The notes under the pieces: model-generated | What the model was told of the DNA's origin: nothing | The model's database searches: none | Seen by the model: the letters and a program-made list of their open reading frames with translations, nothing else | Part shown: positions 53,831 to 62,766 of the stretch, one piece after another | How positions within the stretch are numbered: the stretch's first letter is position 1 | Layout of the letters: every line of letters starts with the position of its first letter | Origin: Chrysemys picta bellii | Taxonomy: Eukaryota; Chordata; Testudines; Emydidae | Length of the DNA stretch: 64,000 bases | Assembly: GCF_011386835.1 (NCBI RefSeq) | Contig: NC_088798.1 | Coordinates: forward strand, 8,184,001-8,248,000 | Direction of reading: 5' to 3' | Program-made: the position numbers and the translations under genes

Positions 53831-54429
53831 TCTGAAATCACTTAAAGCAGGTTACATATCTAGCCATTTTACAAAACTGCTTAAAAATACATCAACGTTT
53901 CAGAATGAGATCCACACTAAGTCAGTTCAATCGCATCAGCAAAAATGCCACACAAATCAAGACGACGACATAAGTAAAACACTAAGACTTTATTAAAAAT
54001 CCAAAATTTATTGCAAATTGTACTTTGCTTCCCTCCTTTCTTCATTTTTACATGATTTATTGATATCCATGATTTTTTCACAGATGTATTTGTTGACTTT
54101 GGAGAGTCTCTGTGCAATTTCAGTTTCATCCACAGTTTCTTGTGCTATTCTGTCATACAAACATTCTGGGGGAAAAAGTAAGAGAACAGCAGTTATTTTT
54201 AAGAAAAGAATTTAGCCCTGTGCTGGAAATCAGTACAGCAAATAAAACATGCTCAAGGTACTATAGAGCCAGCACTTCATTAGCAACTTGTATATTTTTG
54301 TAATTCAGTGTTCTATTGTACAATAAAAGGGTTCTCTGATTCATTGGTTTGGTCCCCCTTATCTGGCACAAGTTTAGGCTTGCCATGTTTGAATCTTTGT
54401 AGGGCACAAGCAGCTCACAAGTTATGACA
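53831..54429. other. Unique non-coding DNA
   Basis: Open frames on both strands (53917-54129 minus, 54018-54303 plus) overlap each other and lack family motifs. No splice-bounded exon is convincing. Confidence 0.35.
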
Positions 54430-54905: not shown

Positions 54906-56438
54906 CAATGAGGTCAGTGGGAGCTGAGACCACTCTCTACTACCCGCAGATGGCACTTAGCAAGTTGCAGGATCAAATGTTTTTCTGCAATGAATTAGAG
55001 AGGTAGCACCCTACTTTCAGCTCCTTAAAATCAGGTGTGCATTTTGTTATGTTTTATAATTGAAATAATTTCTATTGTCGTGTAGGCTACGAGTAATAAA
55101 TAGCTTCCAAGATTGATTAAACAATCTCTGCTTTGCTTTGGCTAGTAATCAATTTTAGCAGCCATTTATTGCTTCATATTCTAGAAAGCTATAGAGATTA
55201 TTGCTTAATTAACAAGTTTTATAATGTTGCTAATGCATCGTATTAAAAGTTATGAAAATTAAGTATTATTCATGCTTTGCAGTTCATTTTGAAGCTGCTC
55301 AGAAGTTTTATAAAAGGTTATATTTTGCATTAACAAGGTGTATAACAGTGCTCGGGCATCAAACTTTTTATAACTTCTGTATAATATACTACACAGTAGG
55401 GATTTTTAAGCAGCAAGAGATGTTAGCCACCTTAAGGGCTAATTCTGTCTTTTTAAAATGTATTTTAAACAAACTATTCTGCGACTAGAAAATGGTGAAA
55501 ACATCTGAAACAATATGAATTTTATGGACTCTTCACTGGAAAATGTATTGGCTATTGTTAAATAAATAAAACCAATTGGCAGACAGACTAACGGATGTCA
55601 ATATGCAGCAAAATATTATTTGAAATAATGTGGCAAACAATGGGGGAATTAACTGTAACAGATTCATTGTGCTCAAGGCAGAATATTACATCACTATAGA
55701 AACTTCAGTAGTATAGCACTGAACTATTAGTAACAAATAGGGGGTTTCTGCCCAAGAGACCTGCCACATAAGTACAGACAATATTGTGACTTTACCACAG
55801 CCCTGAACAAGGGATGATGTGTAAGTTGTATCAATTCAAAAGTGGCCCTAGGAGTCACGGTGACTCAGACATACCCCATGAGCCACAATTCCTCCCTGCT
55901 TCCTTCCTGCCCGCACCCCAGAGGGCTATAAGGGGGAGTAATTTACTGCTGGTATAAGGCTGCTGGTTTAGCTACTGATCAGTGAGATGGGCTCCACCTA
56001 TTCCTTGTCGTCCAGCTATGTGGAGGGAGTAAGTAGACAAGTAGCCCCATTCTCTCCTACGCAACTGGATCTGAGATTCAGGTAGTCTGCACAGGTGTGT
56101 AAGAGAATTGTACTCCTTTGTTTAGGTGTACAGTCCAGGTCATTGGCCATGCACAGCAAGGCCCTACACTCAATGTCATGGCATCCCTGTGTCTGTATTG
56201 GGATAACTTTTGAACACTGAATCCAACCAATTTCAAAGTTTCAGGGACTGGTCTAGGCATCAATGGCAGTACCCTGTTGATTCTGGTGAAAACCAGAAAA
56301 GCCGGACTTGGAGGAAGATATCAGGCCCACAGACTGCCTGATGTTGCAAGCAGAAGAATCGCTCTGGCATCCCCCGATGCTGCCTACACTTATCACAGGC
56401 AGCAGGTAACTGGCTGCATGGGGAGATTGTCTACAGTG
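54906..56438. other. Unique non-coding DNA, possibly conserved in part
   Basis: 55050-55500 is AT-rich, complex and repeat-free with several TAAT/ATTA cores, so it is a candidate conserved non-coding element by appearance only. The remainder shows nothing recognisable. Confidence 0.4.
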
Positions 56439-57487
56439 CAGCAGTTCTCAGCGGGCCAAGCTGTGTGCTAACGGCCGCCAACGTGCCAGGATCACCAGCC
56501 TGCCCCGCATGGCAGGAGTCTGGGGTTAGCGCTGGTGGCTGGTCAGGGATCTGGGGCTCCCACCAGGGTGTGGGGCAGCCATGCGGTGGGGATCTGGACA
56601 GTGGCCGGCCCCATGAGCTCCAGGGGCTGGGGCAGCCGGCCCACCCCATGTTGCAGGGGCCGGGGCAGGCAGCCGGGTCCAGAAGTGAGGGCAGCCACGC
56701 GGCGGGGGTCCTGGGCAAACAGCCCCACAGCCCTGCATGGCGGTGGTCCAGGGTCAGGGCAGCTGCATGGGGGCCTGGCAGCTTGCTAGCCCCGTCAAGC
56801 CTTGTGGGGTCTGGGGTGGGCCACGGCAGCCATCCCCACAGCGGGGATCCAGGATGGGTGCAGCTGCGGTCCAGGGTTGGGGCAGCCATGTGGCTCCAGG
56901 TGGTGGGGGTCCAGGTCTGCCAGCCACTCACCCCCACAGGGCAGCTGTGTGGCAGGGGTCTGGAGTCAGGGCAGCCAACCCTGCCCTTCAGGGTCCAGGG
57001 TGGGCCTCAGCAGGCAGCTGGCCCTGCGACAGGGGTCTGGGGTCAGGGCAGCTAGCCCAGTGGTGGGGTCTGGGGGCTAGGCAGCAGGGGTCTGGAGTCA
57101 GGGCAGCTGGCCGTCCCGGCCTGCCCCACCCAGCCTCATGGTGGGCTGTGGTAGGCAGCTGGCCCCATGGCAAGGGTCTGGGCAGCCACACGGCTCCACA
57201 GGGTGGGGATCTGGGTCTGCCGGCCAGCCCCAAAGGGTCTGGGGCAGCCACGCAGCATGGGTCCAGGGTAGAAGCAGCCCTGCTGCAGGCATCTGGGGCA
57301 GGTTGCCAGCCCCACAGGGGCTGGGGCAGCCACACAGGTCTGGGGGCCAGGGCAGCCAACTGGCTCCACATGGTGGGGGGGTCCAAGCTCAGGGTCCGGG
57401 CTGCCGCTGCCCTGCCCCCTGCAGCCCAGATAACACATTGTGGGCCACATATGCGGCCCGCCGTGTGTAACAAGTTGAGAACCACTG
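56439..57487. mobile_element. GC-rich non-autonomous element with hAT-like ends
   Basis: The ends CAGCAGTTCTCAGC and GTTGAGAACCACTG are imperfect inverted repeats of the CAG...CTG type. The expected 8-bp target duplication is poor (CTACAGTG versus CTCTAGAA). The interior is a degenerate tandem array of GGGGTCTGGGGCAGCCA-like units of roughly 35-70 bp. Frames up to 272 aa (56737-57555) arise from the repeat and its composition; I do not regard them as genes. Confidence 0.6.
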
Positions 57488-58093
57488 CTCTAGAAATAAG
57501 AGAACTTTATAGGATACACTTTGAGGGATGTGTGGCAAAGGGAGAATGGTGGTAATGAGGGAAGCAATGATCTGAAGAGGTGGTGTGGGCAGGTCAAGCA
57601 AGGACCTAGAGTTGTGGTGGGGGAGAGATACTGTTTATAATGAACCCACAGTTTCTCCACAAATATCTGCCCTGGAAGGAGAAGGGACCCTGGTGTGTAA
57701 GTAAGTGATTCCCAAGCACAGTTTGAGGAGGAGGGTGCGAAGGAGGGTTCTGGTGGGTAAGGGTGTGAACTAACAGCAGATTAATATGCTGCTCTCTCTC
57801 ACCACAGACGCAATAGTGTATGACCCTCTAATAATCTTGCCCTAAGCCCATATGAAGGGAGTGCTGGTGGATGATAGGCAGGTTACCTACAGAAAAGAGC
57901 CTGATTTAGGTGCACCAACCAGGCTACAACTCTCAATTGGTAAATGAGTATTAGGTAGAGATCATGAATGAGAAAACAGGATTCTTGTTGCTTGAAGCTA
58001 TATTGCAATGGAAATTCCCCCTATCAAAAAAATCACTACACTAAAAACCAAAAACAATCCACACTCCATTAGTGATGTAGGTAGCATCTCTAT
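57488..58093. other. Unique non-coding DNA
   Basis: No gene or repeat recognised. Confidence 0.4.
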
Positions 58094-58260
58094 CTTTTTA
58101 TCAGGTATTTGGAGCAATCAAATTTTTGAATTGCTCCGCTCCAGCTCCACTCTGGCACCAATATTGACTGCTCCAGCTCCGCTCCAACTCCGCGCTCCGA
58201 CTCAAATTAATTTTTAACTAAATAAAAAGTGCATACTTTGTAATTTTGAAAACACATTTT

Positions 58261-58266
58261 TTTATT
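58261..58266 (-). promoter_or_regulatory. Polyadenylation signal of the transposase gene
   Basis: AATAAA on the minus strand, about 47 bp after the TGA stop at 58313 and still inside the element, so the transposon carries its own 3' end signal. Confidence 0.65.
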
Positions 58267-58312
58267 CAGACTTTTAAAACAATTTAAATGTCATCAATGA
58301 TACAAACTAGAA

Positions 58313-60595
58313 TCATTCATAATTCATTCTGTAAAAAATTATTGCCGCAATCAAGTCATCTTTCATAGCCTGCCGCAAATCATTTAAAATTAACTTTAAA
58401 GCCGAAAACAGTCGCTCTACACTAGCTTGAGTTGTTGTCATGCTTGAAGCAATTCTACAGGCAGCCTGAATGCGGTGTGGGTAGCTGTGAATGGCCTCAA
58501 AAACAGACTTAACTTTTAGCCTACCAATAGACTCCATCGCCTCACAATCTTCCCGAAAGTTTCTCTCAAATAATGCTTCATTACAATTATGAATCGCAGA
58601 AACTCGCTGGCGTCTTTCTTGTTTATCCAATTCCTTTTCGAAGTCGTCATCTTCTGAAGAATTGATGCTTGAATTATCTCCATTTCCCCGTGATGGCTGA
58701 AGACGTCTCACGGATGGACGCTCGAACAAGTTCAGAGGGGAGACGGAAGTTTGAGAACAGCCTGCTACTTCTGAAGGATGTTCAGAAACCGCAAATTCAA
58801 TTGTTGACTCCTTTTGTTGTGTTTCATTTTCTTCAACCTCTTTCGCTGAGTTCAAATATAGCAATAAATTTTGTTTTTCGAGTCGTCGAGCAATATCAAG
58901 GAGGCCTTCCTTTGCCTTTGGTATTTCCCTTGAGGTAAGAAGAATCCGATACCGTGGGTCAACATAAACTCCAGCAAGGAAATGAATATTGTCAAAAAGC
59001 TTCTCTTCGTGTTTCTGCATGGAGGACAGAATTCCTTCTGCAATTTGTCCACCATTTTCTTGCAAGAATTTTGACAGTTTTCGCCATTCCTTCATTAACA
59101 CTCCGGGGGTTACATCAACAGCTTGAAGATTCACAGTTGTTTGGTTTGGCTTTGCCAAGAGGTCTCGCAGGTTCTTCACTTCGTCCCATTCAGCTTTTGT
59201 TAACTTGAGTTCTCTTGTTCCAGCAGCAGCCATTTGTTCACAGTAAGACTGAAAAACGAGAAGCCGATCAATCATCACAAATGTTGAACCCCAGTGAGTC
59301 ACAGTATCCAATGATTGAGTTACTCCATGTAGATCAAGCAGAACGCTTTGAATACTTGGGGTTTGTAGTTTGACAACGACTTGTCGAATTTTTGCCAGAA
59401 ATTTCTTCGCGTGTTCTTTGTTCAGTCCATCCCAGATTGCCAACTGAAGAGTGTGAATACCACACCTCATCAGTTGGACTTTTGAGTCATCCTCATGAAG
59501 CCATGTTGGAAGTATGAGGGTAGGGTCATTAACCCATTGTGCAGCAGCATCCACATGGAGTTCGATTTCATTCATTCCTTTAGCTCCTTCATCAGGCAAC
59601 ATAGCTTCAGTTCTGTCCACATCCCTGTTCTCAGAGGTTGAAATGGTTTCATTGTCCTCGCTGAAATTTTTGACAGCACACGTCATGTTTGCTGCATTGT
59701 CAACGCAGATGCTCAGCACTTGCATTTCACTGATCCCAAATTTTTCTAAAATAGCTTTTACTTGACTTTTCACATACGAAGAATTGTGACACCCTTCAGT
59801 GTCGATTACGTCCAAGGTTTTTACCACAGCTTTATCTTTTCCTTCTTCATAGTACTGAGCATTGATTGCAAGGAAATTTCTGTTTCCACGGGTTGCTGCA
59901 TCCATTTTCAGGTAGCACAATTTTTGCTCCAAAGCTTTCTTGAGCTCTTTGCGACCAGACTCAGCTGTGCTGACAACTAAATGACGAACCGCATCGTGCC
60001 CCATCGAAACGCCAAGCTGCCGACCCATTTCACCTGCAATTTTTTGGAATCCTTTGTTCTTTAGCCTGAAGGTAGTGAGCGGTGTTGAACTCAAGCAAAC
60101 CATTTCCATCAGCCCTTCACGGAAAGTATTGGCATCCATGGTGACTGTAACCTTTGAGGACTTCAAACATGAGTCAAGTTTTGTTTGCTCAATTTTGGGT
60201 TTCTTTTCAGATGAAGCTCCGCAAAAAATCTTTTCTCCAGGAGTTTTCAAAGAGCCAGATGAACGTCGTTTAGCTGCGTCAGCTTTCTGTTTTGCCTCAT
60301 CTTCCTGGTTCTTTTTTGTAACCAGAGCCGCATAGTTTTCAGGATGGTTACGTTTTACATGCCGCCAAAGGTTGAAACTTTTCACGGCACTTGCTTCACT
60401 TGTCTTGAAGCTACATGGTTTGAGCTCGCCATTCACTTCCTTTTCCACCTTGCACGTTGCCGATTTCTTCTTTGCTTTTCCCAAAAGCCCAAATTTGGGC
60501 TTTTCAAATTCAAAAATAAAGACGTCATTGAGATCCTTTTCCGTAAATCGGCTATCAATCATGGGGGGCAGATTTGATTTTTTTGTTGAAGCCAT
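58313..60595 (-). CDS. hAT-family transposase with BED zinc finger (760 aa)
   Basis: This protein would cut out and reinsert the element in the nucleus. Residues are counted from the ATG at 60595, whose context GGCCATGG is a strong start. A BED-type finger uses Cys48, Cys61, His79 and His84 (CSFKT...FNLWRHVKRNH). The RNase H-like core shows Asp232 in KMDAATRGNRNFLAI and Asp299 in CVDNAANMT. The inserted helical domain has Cys378 and His381 (RCGIHTLQLAI) and Trp435 in THWGSTF. The third acidic residue is Glu727 in TQASVERLFSALKLILNDLR, within the C-terminal dimerisation region that ends RMNYE. All expected DDE and hAT landmarks are present, with no stop or frameshift. The frame stays open to about 60658 without an ATG, consistent with an upstream spliced exon. 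Activity is not shown, and domestication is less likely because the element ends are intact. Confidence 0.95.
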   Translation of the reverse strand: MASTKKSNLPPMIDSRFTEKDLNDVFIFEFEKPKFGLLGKAKKKSATCKVEKEVNGELKPCSFKTSEASAVKSFNLWRHVKRNHPENYAALVTKKNQEDEAKQKADAAKRRSSGSLKTPGEKIFCGASSEKKPKIEQTKLDSCLKSSKVTVTMDANTFREGLMEMVCLSSTPLTTFRLKNKGFQKIAGEMGRQLGVSMGHDAVRHLVVSTAESGRKELKKALEQKLCYLKMDAATRGNRNFLAINAQYYEEGKDKAVVKTLDVIDTEGCHNSSYVKSQVKAILEKFGISEMQVLSICVDNAANMTCAVKNFSEDNETISTSENRDVDRTEAMLPDEGAKGMNEIELHVDAAAQWVNDPTLILPTWLHEDDSKVQLMRCGIHTLQLAIWDGLNKEHAKKFLAKIRQVVVKLQTPSIQSVLLDLHGVTQSLDTVTHWGSTFVMIDRLLVFQSYCEQMAAAGTRELKLTKAEWDEVKNLRDLLAKPNQTTVNLQAVDVTPGVLMKEWRKLSKFLQENGGQIAEGILSSMQKHEEKLFDNIHFLAGVYVDPRYRILLTSREIPKAKEGLLDIARRLEKQNLLLYLNSAKEVEENETQQKESTIEFAVSEHPSEVAGCSQTSVSPLNLFERPSVRRLQPSRGNGDNSSINSSEDDDFEKELDKQERRQRVSAIHNCNEALFERNFREDCEAMESIGRLKVKSVFEAIHSYPHRIQAACRIASSMTTTQASVERLFSALKLILNDLRQAMKDDLIAAIIFYRMNYE

Positions 60596-60645
60596 GGCCA
60601 AATCTTCTTGTGCTGCTACCGCATCCAAATGTTTCTTGTTATGAT

Positions 60646-62239
60646 CTTCAAAAAGCAATGAACAAAAGCATTACATCTTTTTGTAATGTACCTGCTTGTG
60701 ATATCTTAACCAATTAAGGTACTTAGAATTTATTTTGGATTTTCTGGACAAAAATGATCGCATTTTCTTTTTACACAAATTAAAGTATATTTTAATATTT
60801 TAACATGTTTCTTGCAGTTTTAATGAAGTAATAAGTATTTTAATATACATAAATATTTATAAATTGCAAATTAGTTTTTCTTATGAAATTTTGCAGTAAA
60901 AATATTTGAAATATTTCCCACATTTTTAATATCTCAAGTGCTTTAATATAGATATGTCAATGAAATTTGGTATGTGCCATAGCATTAGTACATGCTATCG
61001 CTGTTCTACAACATTAATTGTTGGGAAGTAATGAGGCTACACGTTACAAGGTTAAAAATAAACTTTCACGGGAAAGTGGGTTCAAATTGCGAGCACAGTC
61101 CCTGTAACAGAGAGCAAATTTTAGGAAATATGTTTTTCCTTCAACACCCTGAATAGATTATACAAGATAGAGCAAACAACAGGTTCTATCTTGTATAATG
61201 TTTCCAGCCTGATGAAGGAAAAACATATTTCCAAAAATTTGCTCTTTTTACTAAAAAGGACTGTGCTTGCAGTTTGAATCTGCTTTCCCGTTACAGTCTA
61301 TTTCCAACGTCATGAACTGGGGGAGGGAGGGGGGAAGACTAGGCCAATTTTATTTAATATTTTTTAAATCTTCGACTATTTAACAGATACGACCCTAGCA
61401 TATGATTTAATGCTAAAACATGCATTAAAATGGTACTCAATGTATTTTGTATAATTAACCATTTCTGAGAAAACTGTTTAAAAATTTTAATCTGCTTAAA
61501 TGCTTAGAATGATGCAAACAATTTTACTTATTACTTATTTTTCAACTTTGGAACCATAAATTTTAAACGCAATAATAAATGACCACCAAAAATTAACAAC
61601 TTATTATGGAACATAATATTACCTCGTAGTCAGGGGCGGTCGACAACAAGCCTTTCTTGAAATATGAAATAAAAATGAGCAACCGCCAGTTTGGGACACC
61701 TATGGCTTAAATAATTTTGGATAATGTAATATGGTAGCACATACTAATGCTAAGACACAGACAATTTCATTACTTTATATTGAAGCGTTTTTGAGATATT
61801 CATCAGAAATTAACTTTTCATCACCTCCTTGAAGGGACTGTAGCTCCCTTAGGAAGAATTTTAGGACCCGTGTTCACAAAAACGTTTTTTCTTAAAATGA
61901 CGTAAGGATCCACCCCCAAAGTTGTGTTGGACATTTTCCAATCACTCTGGATATATCACAAAAATCACTCCTAATTTATGCAAAAATGTTTACTGTATAC
62001 TTATATGCCTGCTGAACGTGATTTTTTCAATAAATTTAAAATTACAAACAACAACACTACCAAAAGACCGTTGAACAGATGACATATAAATTAAGTCCAC
62101 CAGAGTGATACAGGAGCATGTACAAATGAACAAATGTACCGATAACGGGAGCCCGTGTGAGAAATGAGCTTAAGTGGTGAATATGTCTTGCGATATCTTA
62201 ATATAGCAATAAACAAAAACATTTTTTTTTGCAATATAC
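60646..62239 (-). other. Predicted transposase intron, 1594 bp, with a long hairpin
   Basis: AT-rich and without a convincing frame. An imperfect hairpin spans about 61067-61293: 61124-61143 pairs perfectly with 61213-61232 over 20 bp, and 61157-61170 pairs with 61186-61199 over 14 bp, with a 15-nt loop. A donor-like copy of the exon 1 end (TGATATCTTA, ACCTGCTTGTG on +) lies at about 60661-60709. Confidence 0.5.
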
Positions 62240-62273
62240 CTGTTTGTGGCATCTTAAATGTTGCGTCTTGCAT
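62240..62273 (-). CDS. Candidate first coding exon of the transposase
   Basis: On the minus strand an ATG at 62273 opens 11 codons and ends with ACAG at a GTATAT donor (62239). The best acceptor is TTTTTGAAG at 60646, before ATCATAAC. Joining 62240 to 60645 keeps frame with the transposase (G plus AT gives Asp) and would make a 788-aa product. A stop lies just upstream of the frame containing this ATG, so the exon could start there or be partly untranslated. This is inferred from splice-site grammar and frame only. Confidence 0.5.
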
Positions 62274-62766
62274 CACAATTTTCCGTAATCGCAGCACTCA
62301 GTGCATCTCGTTGATCAACCCTTACAAAAGAAGTATCAACACATACTAATCTAACTAATCTACACTAGTATGTACTCGCCTAACCTTGGCACAAGGGTTG
62401 GAGCAGTCTGCAGTATTGCCGGATGTCTGATATGTTTTATTAAAGAATCAGATAACTATCTCCAAAAAACATTGTAATTTTGTATCTGTACATTAAATCT
62501 TGATTTCGGCCGAAGTGAGAATAACTGACATATTACGTAAAGTGGTAACGTAGATGTTAATATCAATTGTTATACAATCTAAAACTTTTTGGCACCTTTA
62601 GGACTTTCTTGCTAAATATCATTCATTTTGGATTGAAAATGAAAAAAAAAACTGGAGCAGTCAAGATTTTCTGTGCTCCGGCTCTACTACAGCTCCGGGC
62701 AAAAACCTGCAGCTCCACTGCTCCGTGCTCCAGCTCCGGGCTCCGCTGCAAAGCTCTGCTTTTTAT

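What the first reader, a model, noticed from the sequence alone, without database searches (positions are those of the whole stretch)
58094..62766. Full-length hAT transposon with intact transposase and perfect target duplication
The 8-bp duplication CTTTTTAT is exact, the ends are CAG...CTG, and the 760-aa transposase keeps the BED finger, both core Asp residues and the C-terminal Glu without a stop. Most DNA transposons in this window are short non-autonomous relics, so an uninterrupted autonomous copy stands out. It suggests recent activity, perhaps after horizontal transfer.
Basis: partly seen in the sequence, partly recalled or inferred. Interest (0 to 1): 0.75.

Follow-up and report, generated by a model that had tools for sequence, protein, structure and literature searches.

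The report
Old transposon kept inside turtle BEND5
A complete-looking jumping gene in a turtle genome turns out to be an old insertion inside the gene BEND5 whose protein has stayed readable while its relatives in the same genome decayed, so it was probably kept for some use rather than having jumped recently.

Summary
The anatomy is confirmed: a 4657-bp hAT element (58102-62758) with exact 8-bp duplications and an open transposase frame on the minus strand. Recent activity or transfer is not supported. The element lies in the last intron of BEND5, same strand (last BEND5 exon 54008-54165; preceding exon 646 bp past the window). Trachemys and Malaclemys proteins named 'BEND5 isoform X2' appear to be this same copy: they share 10 and 7 of 13 amino-acid changes that mark it in its own genome. 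Of 12 other loci examined there, one (C2) is open, ten carry 6-19 ORF lesions, one is a fragment with stops; on a star-like tree this copy is as diverged as the dead ones, 5 of 6 of which also have exact duplications. On its private branch non-coding and synonymous sites changed 2.7%, nonsynonymous 0.75%; 12.9 lesions were expected under neutrality, none is seen (P=2.5e-6). The frame was kept by selection while the rest decayed. Most likely it is a transposase-derived gene nested in BEND5. Rival: a lineage that stayed mobile until it entered BEND5 in an emydid ancestor. In other turtles, gene models join host exons to this transposase at its own splice acceptor.

The parts
58094..58101 (.). 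left target-site duplication CTTTTTAT
   Evidence: exact repeat of 62759-62766
58102..58115 (.). left terminal inverted repeat CAGGTATTTGGAGC (commonest form in other copies CAGGGATTTGGAGC)
58111..58198 (.). left subterminal cluster of GGAGC/GCTCC motifs (8 in the first 100 bp); likely transposase binding region by analogy with other hAT elements (recalled)
   Evidence: 16 motifs in the terminal 100 and 130 bp against at most 3 in 5000 single-base shuffles of the element
58261..58266 (-). polyadenylation signal AATAAA, 46 nt after the stop codon
58313..60645 (-). transposase coding exon 2 (first exon base 60645; stop codon 58313-58315; ancestral start probably ATG of MASTKK, 760 aa); expected catalytic D 59900-59902, D 59699-59701, E 58415-58417
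   Evidence: Hermes-like fold
60646..62239 (-). intron of the transposase gene, GT...AG, 1594 nt
   Evidence: donor CAG|GTATAT, acceptor TTTTTGAAG|ATC; the splice gives the N-terminus MQDATFKMPQTDHNKK of the Trachemys and Malaclemys proteins P0001 and P0002
61051..61308 (.). imperfect palindrome inside the intron; its self-inverse match is also seen in 9 of 12 other loci, so an old part of the element
62240..62273 (-). upstream exon MQDATFKMPQ(T); at its ATG, 7 other copies are readable: ACG or ACA in 4, ATA in 1, ATG in 2, so this start may not be ancestral
62654..62744 (.). right subterminal cluster of GGAGC/GCTCC motifs (8)
62745..62758 (.). right terminal inverted repeat (reads CAGAGCTTTGCAGC inward; commonest form in other copies CAGGGCTTTGGAGC)
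62759..62766 (.). right target-site duplication CTTTTTAT
54008..54165 (-). last coding exon of BEND5 (ECLYDRIAQ...KYNLQ-stop), which places the element in the last BEND5 intron, same strand; the penultimate exon lies 646-859 bp beyond the window end
   Evidence: tblastn of Gopherus, Dermochelys and Chelonia BEND5, 52 of 52 residues; BEN domain hit; sequence

Best explanation
The element is an old hAT insertion in the last intron of BEND5 on the BEND5 strand. It was already there before the window's species separated from Trachemys and Malaclemys (inferred from their proteins). Since it separated from its sister copies, its non-coding parts have changed at the rate of its dead siblings while its transposase frame was kept by purifying selection (shown for the whole private branch). 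The most likely reason is that the transposase serves the host as a gene nested in BEND5, made from the element's own exons or from BEND5 upstream exons spliced to the element's acceptor, and that it acts by binding the GGAGC-rich ends of the family's many short relatives through its N-terminal zinc-finger-like domain (both steps inferred, untested).
For: Site: BEND5 exons on both sides, same strand. Shared insertion: P0001 and P0002 are named BEND5 isoform X2 of Trachemys and Malaclemys, start with the element's own exon, lie on contigs of 109.3 and 110.7 Mb against 110.9 Mb for the window's contig, and carry 10 and 7 of the 13 amino-acid changes private to the window copy in its own genome; 4 of those 7 occur in none of the six fusion proteins or the millipede protein compared. 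Selection: private changes 57/2132 non-coding, 13/481 synonymous, 13/1741 nonsynonymous; nonsynonymous against the rest, compared with 11 dead loci (one a fragment), Fisher P=5e-6, and 5e-12 to 1.3e-4 over four filter settings. Coding/non-coding rate ratio 0.47 (0.33-0.65) against 0.73-1.53 in ten dead copies. Changes by codon position 15/9/30 against 325/314/312 in dead copies. No ORF lesion where 12.9 are expected, P=2.5e-6; its coding length differences from other copies are 6 bp (against 11 of 11) and 3 bp (against 9 of 11), both in frame. Intron and ends change at ordinary rates.
Against: The private branch cannot be split into time before and after the insertion with the DNA at hand, so selection may have acted while the lineage still jumped; the coding tree sets the dead copies apart from the window and C2 copies (support 89), so part of that branch may belong to the dead copies' common stem. 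Since the split from Malaclemys the protein differs at 21 of 747 sites, against 12 of 750 for the open C2 gene between the same two species, a looser constraint, mostly on the Malaclemys branch. No BEND5-named transposase protein was listed for turtles other than Trachemys and Malaclemys (14 hits), though a very old essential gene should be wider. Nonsynonymous:synonymous alone is P=0.06 when CpG-type sites are dropped. The ratio interval of one dead copy (L036, 0.53-1.01) overlaps that of the window copy, as narrowly do three others with lower bounds of 0.61-0.65 (L033, L034, L040). Three of the 7 shared residues also occur in other proteins compared. Expression was not testable.
Confidence: 0.56

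Rival explanations
1. Late survivor: this lineage stayed mobile after the others died, so its transposase was kept by selection for transposition; it entered BEND5 in an emydid ancestor and has since been neutral, still intact because turtle DNA changes slowly.
For: All of the coding constraint could predate insertion; only emydid proteins are linked to BEND5; looser protein evolution since the Malaclemys split; expected catalytic residues all kept.
Against: A mobile lineage should leave close sister copies; no long match above 93% identity was found, in a search that gives lower bounds only. Its terminal repeats depart from the commonest form at three of 28 bases, one shared with a dead copy, weak evidence for a long stay. 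The window's own protein branch (0.0053) is close to that of the constrained C2 gene in the same genome (0.0058).
Confidence: 0.35
2. One reading: a recently active autonomous transposon, perhaps newly arrived by horizontal transfer.
For: Exact duplications, complete length, open frame, expected catalytic residues; recent hAT transfers into turtles are published for another element, hAT-6_XT (PMC11008031, abstract and first part of section 5 seen).
Against: Apparently shared BEND5 insertion in other genera, no close copies, long non-coding branch, exact duplications also at 5 of 6 dead copies.
Confidence: 0.05
3. BEND5-transposase fusion (a form of the best explanation, not exclusive of it): BEND5 exons are spliced to the element acceptor and the product is a BEN-domain/hAT fusion protein.
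For: Same strand; the BEND5 donor and the element acceptor are both phase 1, giving an in-frame junction; in 7 of 9 predicted turtle fusions host residues join at or next to this acceptor; predictors call the transposase an isoform of BEND5.
Against: The listed Trachemys and Malaclemys isoforms begin with the element's own exon or with MASTKK, not with BEND5 residues.
Confidence: 0.15

Closest known systems
ZBED6 and other ZBED genes (domesticated hAT transposases; ZBED6 in ZC3H11A intron 1, ZBED1 in DHRSX intron 1, ZBED2 in CD96 intron 5; PMC3606216, passages seen)
   Same: hAT transposase gene sitting inside an intron of an unrelated host gene
   Different: here the whole element with ends, duplications, intron and complete expected triad is still recognisable, and the BEND5 copy was seen only in emydid turtles; relation to the ZBED clades was not tested
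Host-transposase fusion genes by splicing capture (Cosby et al. 2021, not held; known here only through a passage of PMC8616336)
   Same: in other turtles gene models join host residues (THAP, KRAB, C2H2 or acidic-repeat) to this transposase at its own acceptor
   Different: the window copy itself is not annotated as fused; only the phase fits
Hermes transposase (hAT)
   Different: 14% identity over the alignment; the model is of low confidence overall (pLDDT 63.5)
[quoted passage not shown]
   Same: hAT element reported from Malaclemys and Trachemys
   Different: reported under 1% divergence with insertions not shared between these two turtles; long matches of the family here are 81-93% identical and the BEND5 site appears shared. 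Sequences were not compared

Membership tests
hAT superfamily | 8-bp target-site duplication | tested here: met
   exact in the window copy and in 5 of 6 other copies with both ends readable
hAT superfamily | short terminal inverted repeats with CAG...CTG ends and subterminal repeats | tested here: met
   14-bp repeats, 13 of 14 in three copies, 10 of 14 here; 16 GGAGC motifs at the ends
hAT superfamily | RNase H-like core with inserted domain and D, D, E residues | tested here: met
   12 of 12 Foldseek hits with E up to 0.001 are Hermes; D and E positions conserved in a millipede relative; triad assignment partly recalled
hAT superfamily | C-terminal dimerisation domain PF05699 | tested here: inconclusive
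   19.5 bits against a cut-off of 21.4; the millipede relative passes with 21.9
hAT superfamily | N-terminal BED zinc finger | tested here: inconclusive
   C..C..H..H pattern conserved, no Pfam BED match
domesticated transposase gene | same site in several species with intact frame | tested here: inconclusive
domesticated transposase gene | purifying selection on the frame | tested here: met
   holds for the whole private branch, not separately for the time after insertion
domesticated transposase gene | loss of mobility | tested here: inconclusive
   three terminal-repeat departures, expected catalytic residues kept
domesticated transposase gene | expression and host function | not testable with these tools
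   only the existence of predicted isoforms X2 and X3
host-transposase fusion gene (window copy) | host exons spliced in frame to transposase | tested here: inconclusive
   phase fits but listed isoforms start inside the element
recent horizontal transfer | near-identical copies within the host genome | tested here: not met
   no long match above 93% (counts are lower bounds), long terminal branches

The most novel reading that the evidence does not exclude
An entire autonomous-looking transposon, ends and expected catalytic triad included, has become a second gene inside BEND5 of emydid turtles, while sister copies were joined to host exons of at least three kinds (THAP-KRAB, KRAB-C2H2, acidic-repeat) through the same splice acceptor: one transposon family acting as a serial donor of host genes, in which catalysis-competent (window copy) and probably catalysis-dead (Natator fusion, second Asp to Asn) descendants coexist. 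How many separate captures these are is not known.
Probability: 0.4. Interest if true: 0.68.

Novelty: new member of a known kind. Interest (0 to 1): 0.5.

Why it matters
Intact frame, full length and exact target duplication are commonly read as signs of recent transposition. Here they fail as clocks: 5 of 6 dead siblings with readable ends have exact duplications too, and the intact frame is better explained by selection. If the copy is a host gene, emydid turtles offer a case in which the transposase, its ends, its dead siblings and its host-joined sisters are all still recognisable, so the steps from transposon to gene can be compared directly.

Tried and rejected
Recent insertion was rejected on copy divergence and the apparently shared site. 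The idea that the 'BEND5 isoform' N-terminus MQDATFKMPQ was a BEND5 exon was rejected: it lies inside the element. The exon-1 ATG as the ancestral start is doubted: of 7 readable other copies 4 have ACG or ACA, 1 ATA, 2 ATG. The intron palindrome as a late insertion was rejected: 9 of 12 other loci show it. Dating in years was not attempted: none of the 12 passages of PMC9995274 shown gave a turtle yearly rate. Sequence search of solved structures gave no significant match (one hit, E 0.77). The host exons of the C2 open gene and further BEND5 exons could not be located in the window's genome because the genome search did not complete (and later repeats). Literature: the searches (BEND5, transposase, turtle, two of three; 281 papers, 10 listed; turtle, domesticated transposase, hAT; 1 paper; host-transposase fusion, turtle; 1 paper) listed no paper on this locus; most subscription papers are not held, and of the listed papers I read only those cited.
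Full report
What is there. The window holds a hAT element at 58102-62758 (4657 bp) between exact copies of CTTTTTAT. Its ends begin CAG and end CTG; the terminal 100 and 130 bp hold 16 GGAGC/GCTCC motifs, where 5000 single-base shuffles of the element gave at most 3. The transposase is on the minus strand. Besides the long frame there is an upstream exon at 62273-62240 and a 1594-nt GT-AG intron; splicing it gives the beginning of two database proteins, MQDATFKMPQTDHNKK. An AATAAA lies 46 nt after the stop.

Where it sits. The BEN-domain exon of BEND5 lies 646-859 bp beyond the end of the window, minus strand, and the last BEND5 exon is in the window at 54165-54008, 52 of 52 residues identical to tortoise and sea-turtle BEND5. 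The element is therefore in the last BEND5 intron and reads in the same direction. BEND5's donor and the element's acceptor are both phase 1, so an in-frame BEND5-transposase junction is possible; the listed isoforms do not show it.

Same insertion in other turtles. A protein search (14 hits, 7,994 candidates scored) returned first the proteins called BEND5 isoform X2 or X3 of Trachemys and X2 of Malaclemys, 97-98% identical. X2 starts inside the element. Of 13 amino-acid changes that set the window copy apart from the other copies in its own genome, Trachemys shares 10 and Malaclemys 7; 4 of the 7 occur in none of the six fusion proteins or the millipede protein compared, 3 do. The three form one clade (support 87). 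Their contigs are 109.3 and 110.7 Mb, the window's is 110.9 Mb. I take this as one orthologous insertion; the DNA of the other species was not available. PMC11008031 (first part of section 5) puts the Trachemys-Malaclemys split at 14.5-16 million years.

The family in this genome. The transposase search gave 43 match rows in a 2.37-Gb genome; I examined 12 further loci. One, on C2, is also open; ten carry 6-19 stops or frameshifts each, and one is a fragment with stops. No long match exceeds 93% DNA identity (94.7% at most counting aligned bases only; the search gives lower bounds). The tree of the window copy and 11 others (fragment left out) is star-like in the non-coding part, with short, weakly supported inner branches; non-coding terminal branches of dead copies are 2.6-6.0%, the window copy's 4.9%. 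In the coding part the dead copies group apart from the window and C2 copies (support 89). Five of six dead copies with both ends readable have exact 8-bp duplications, so that feature does not show youth here. Twenty-four rows are short relatives keeping the right-hand 80-90 bp, two of them with the left end adjoining (40 of 953 candidates scored).

Selection. Counting changes private to the window copy gives 57/2132 non-coding, 13/481 synonymous and 13/1741 nonsynonymous; 11 pooled dead loci show 366 nonsynonymous and 124 synonymous. Nonsynonymous against all other changes differs from the dead loci with P=5e-6, and from 5e-12 to 1.3e-4 over four filter settings; nonsynonymous against synonymous alone is P=0.01, 4e-5, 0.005 and, without CpG-type sites, 0.06. 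The coding/non-coding ratio is 0.47 (0.33-0.65) for the window copy, 0.54 (0.39-0.78) for the C2 copy and 0.73-1.53 for ten dead copies; the interval of one dead copy (0.53-1.01) overlaps clearly and three more touch it (lower bounds 0.61-0.65). From the dead copies' lesion rate 12.9 lesions would be expected in the window frame; none is seen (Poisson P=2.5e-6), and its length differences are 6 bp (against 11 of 11 copies) and 3 bp (against 9 of 11). The intron and ends show ordinary rates: intron 45/1482, left 100 bp 2/92, right 130 bp 2/122. The terminal repeats depart from the commonest form at three of 28 bases, one shared with a dead copy.

What this does not settle. The private branch may include time when this lineage still transposed. 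Since the split from Malaclemys the BEND5 copy differs at 21 of 747 residues, the C2 gene at 12 of 750; the excess is mainly on the Malaclemys branch, while the window's own branch (0.0053) is close to that of its C2 gene (0.0058). No BEND5-named transposase was listed for other turtles. Hence 0.56 for a kept host gene and 0.35 for a late survivor.

Sister captures. Nine predicted turtle proteins carry foreign residues before the transposase part. In seven (Malaclemys, Mauremys, Gopherus, Caretta, Macrochelys, Natator, Dermochelys) they join at or next to the element's acceptor (before NKK); in two (Lepidochelys KRAB, Chelonia Wnt-2) they join further inside. Natator and Dermochelys have THAP and KRAB, Macrochelys KRAB plus C2H2 fingers, Malaclemys no Pfam match. 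Three (Malaclemys, Mauremys, Gopherus) have Lys in place of the internal start Met, Natator and Caretta Arg, Dermochelys and Macrochelys keep Met; Natator has Asn for the second expected catalytic Asp. These are automatic gene models. The pattern matches published transposase capture by alternative splicing (PMC8616336, passage). The host exons could not be located in the window's genome because the search did not complete.

Verdict. It is an old hAT copy in BEND5 whose protein has been protected from decay; a nested, transposase-derived gene is the best reading, of the same kind as ZBED genes in introns (PMC3606216, passages).

Noticed in passing
P0004-P0009 and P0011; own genome C2:1164737-1167052 (+): Predicted turtle proteins in which host residues (THAP, KRAB, C2H2 fingers or an acidic-repeat gene) are joined to this transposase at or next to its own splice acceptor; the window genome holds an open copy on C2 close to the Malaclemys one (12 of 750 residues differ).
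   Followed up: partly
P0007 (Natator), residue 299 counted from MAS: Second expected catalytic Asp replaced by Asn in a THAP-KRAB-hAT fusion model, suggesting a DNA-binding rather than cutting role.
   Followed up: no
P0015 (Lepidochelys, KRAB) and P0016 (Chelonia, Wnt-2): Two further gene models join foreign residues to this transposase at points other than the acceptor; they may be annotation artefacts.
   Followed up: no
window 61051-61308: Imperfect 258-bp palindrome in the transposase intron, seen in 9 of 12 other loci; purpose unknown.
   Followed up: partly
G000:C8:73098838-73098989 and G000:C8:69762587-69762742: About 150-bp relatives made of the two ends of the family side by side; 24 rows keep the right end, from a search that scored 40 of 953 candidates.
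   Followed up: no
window 56342-57555: Two long overlapping open frames (237 and 288 aa, stop to stop) in G+C-rich, repetitive-looking sequence between the BEND5 last exon and the element; not looked into beyond one short tandem repeat.
   Followed up: no
P0012 (Chamberlinius hualienensis): The only close non-turtle relative found is a millipede protein at 54% identity; an ancient transfer between arthropods and turtles is possible but untested.
   Followed up: no
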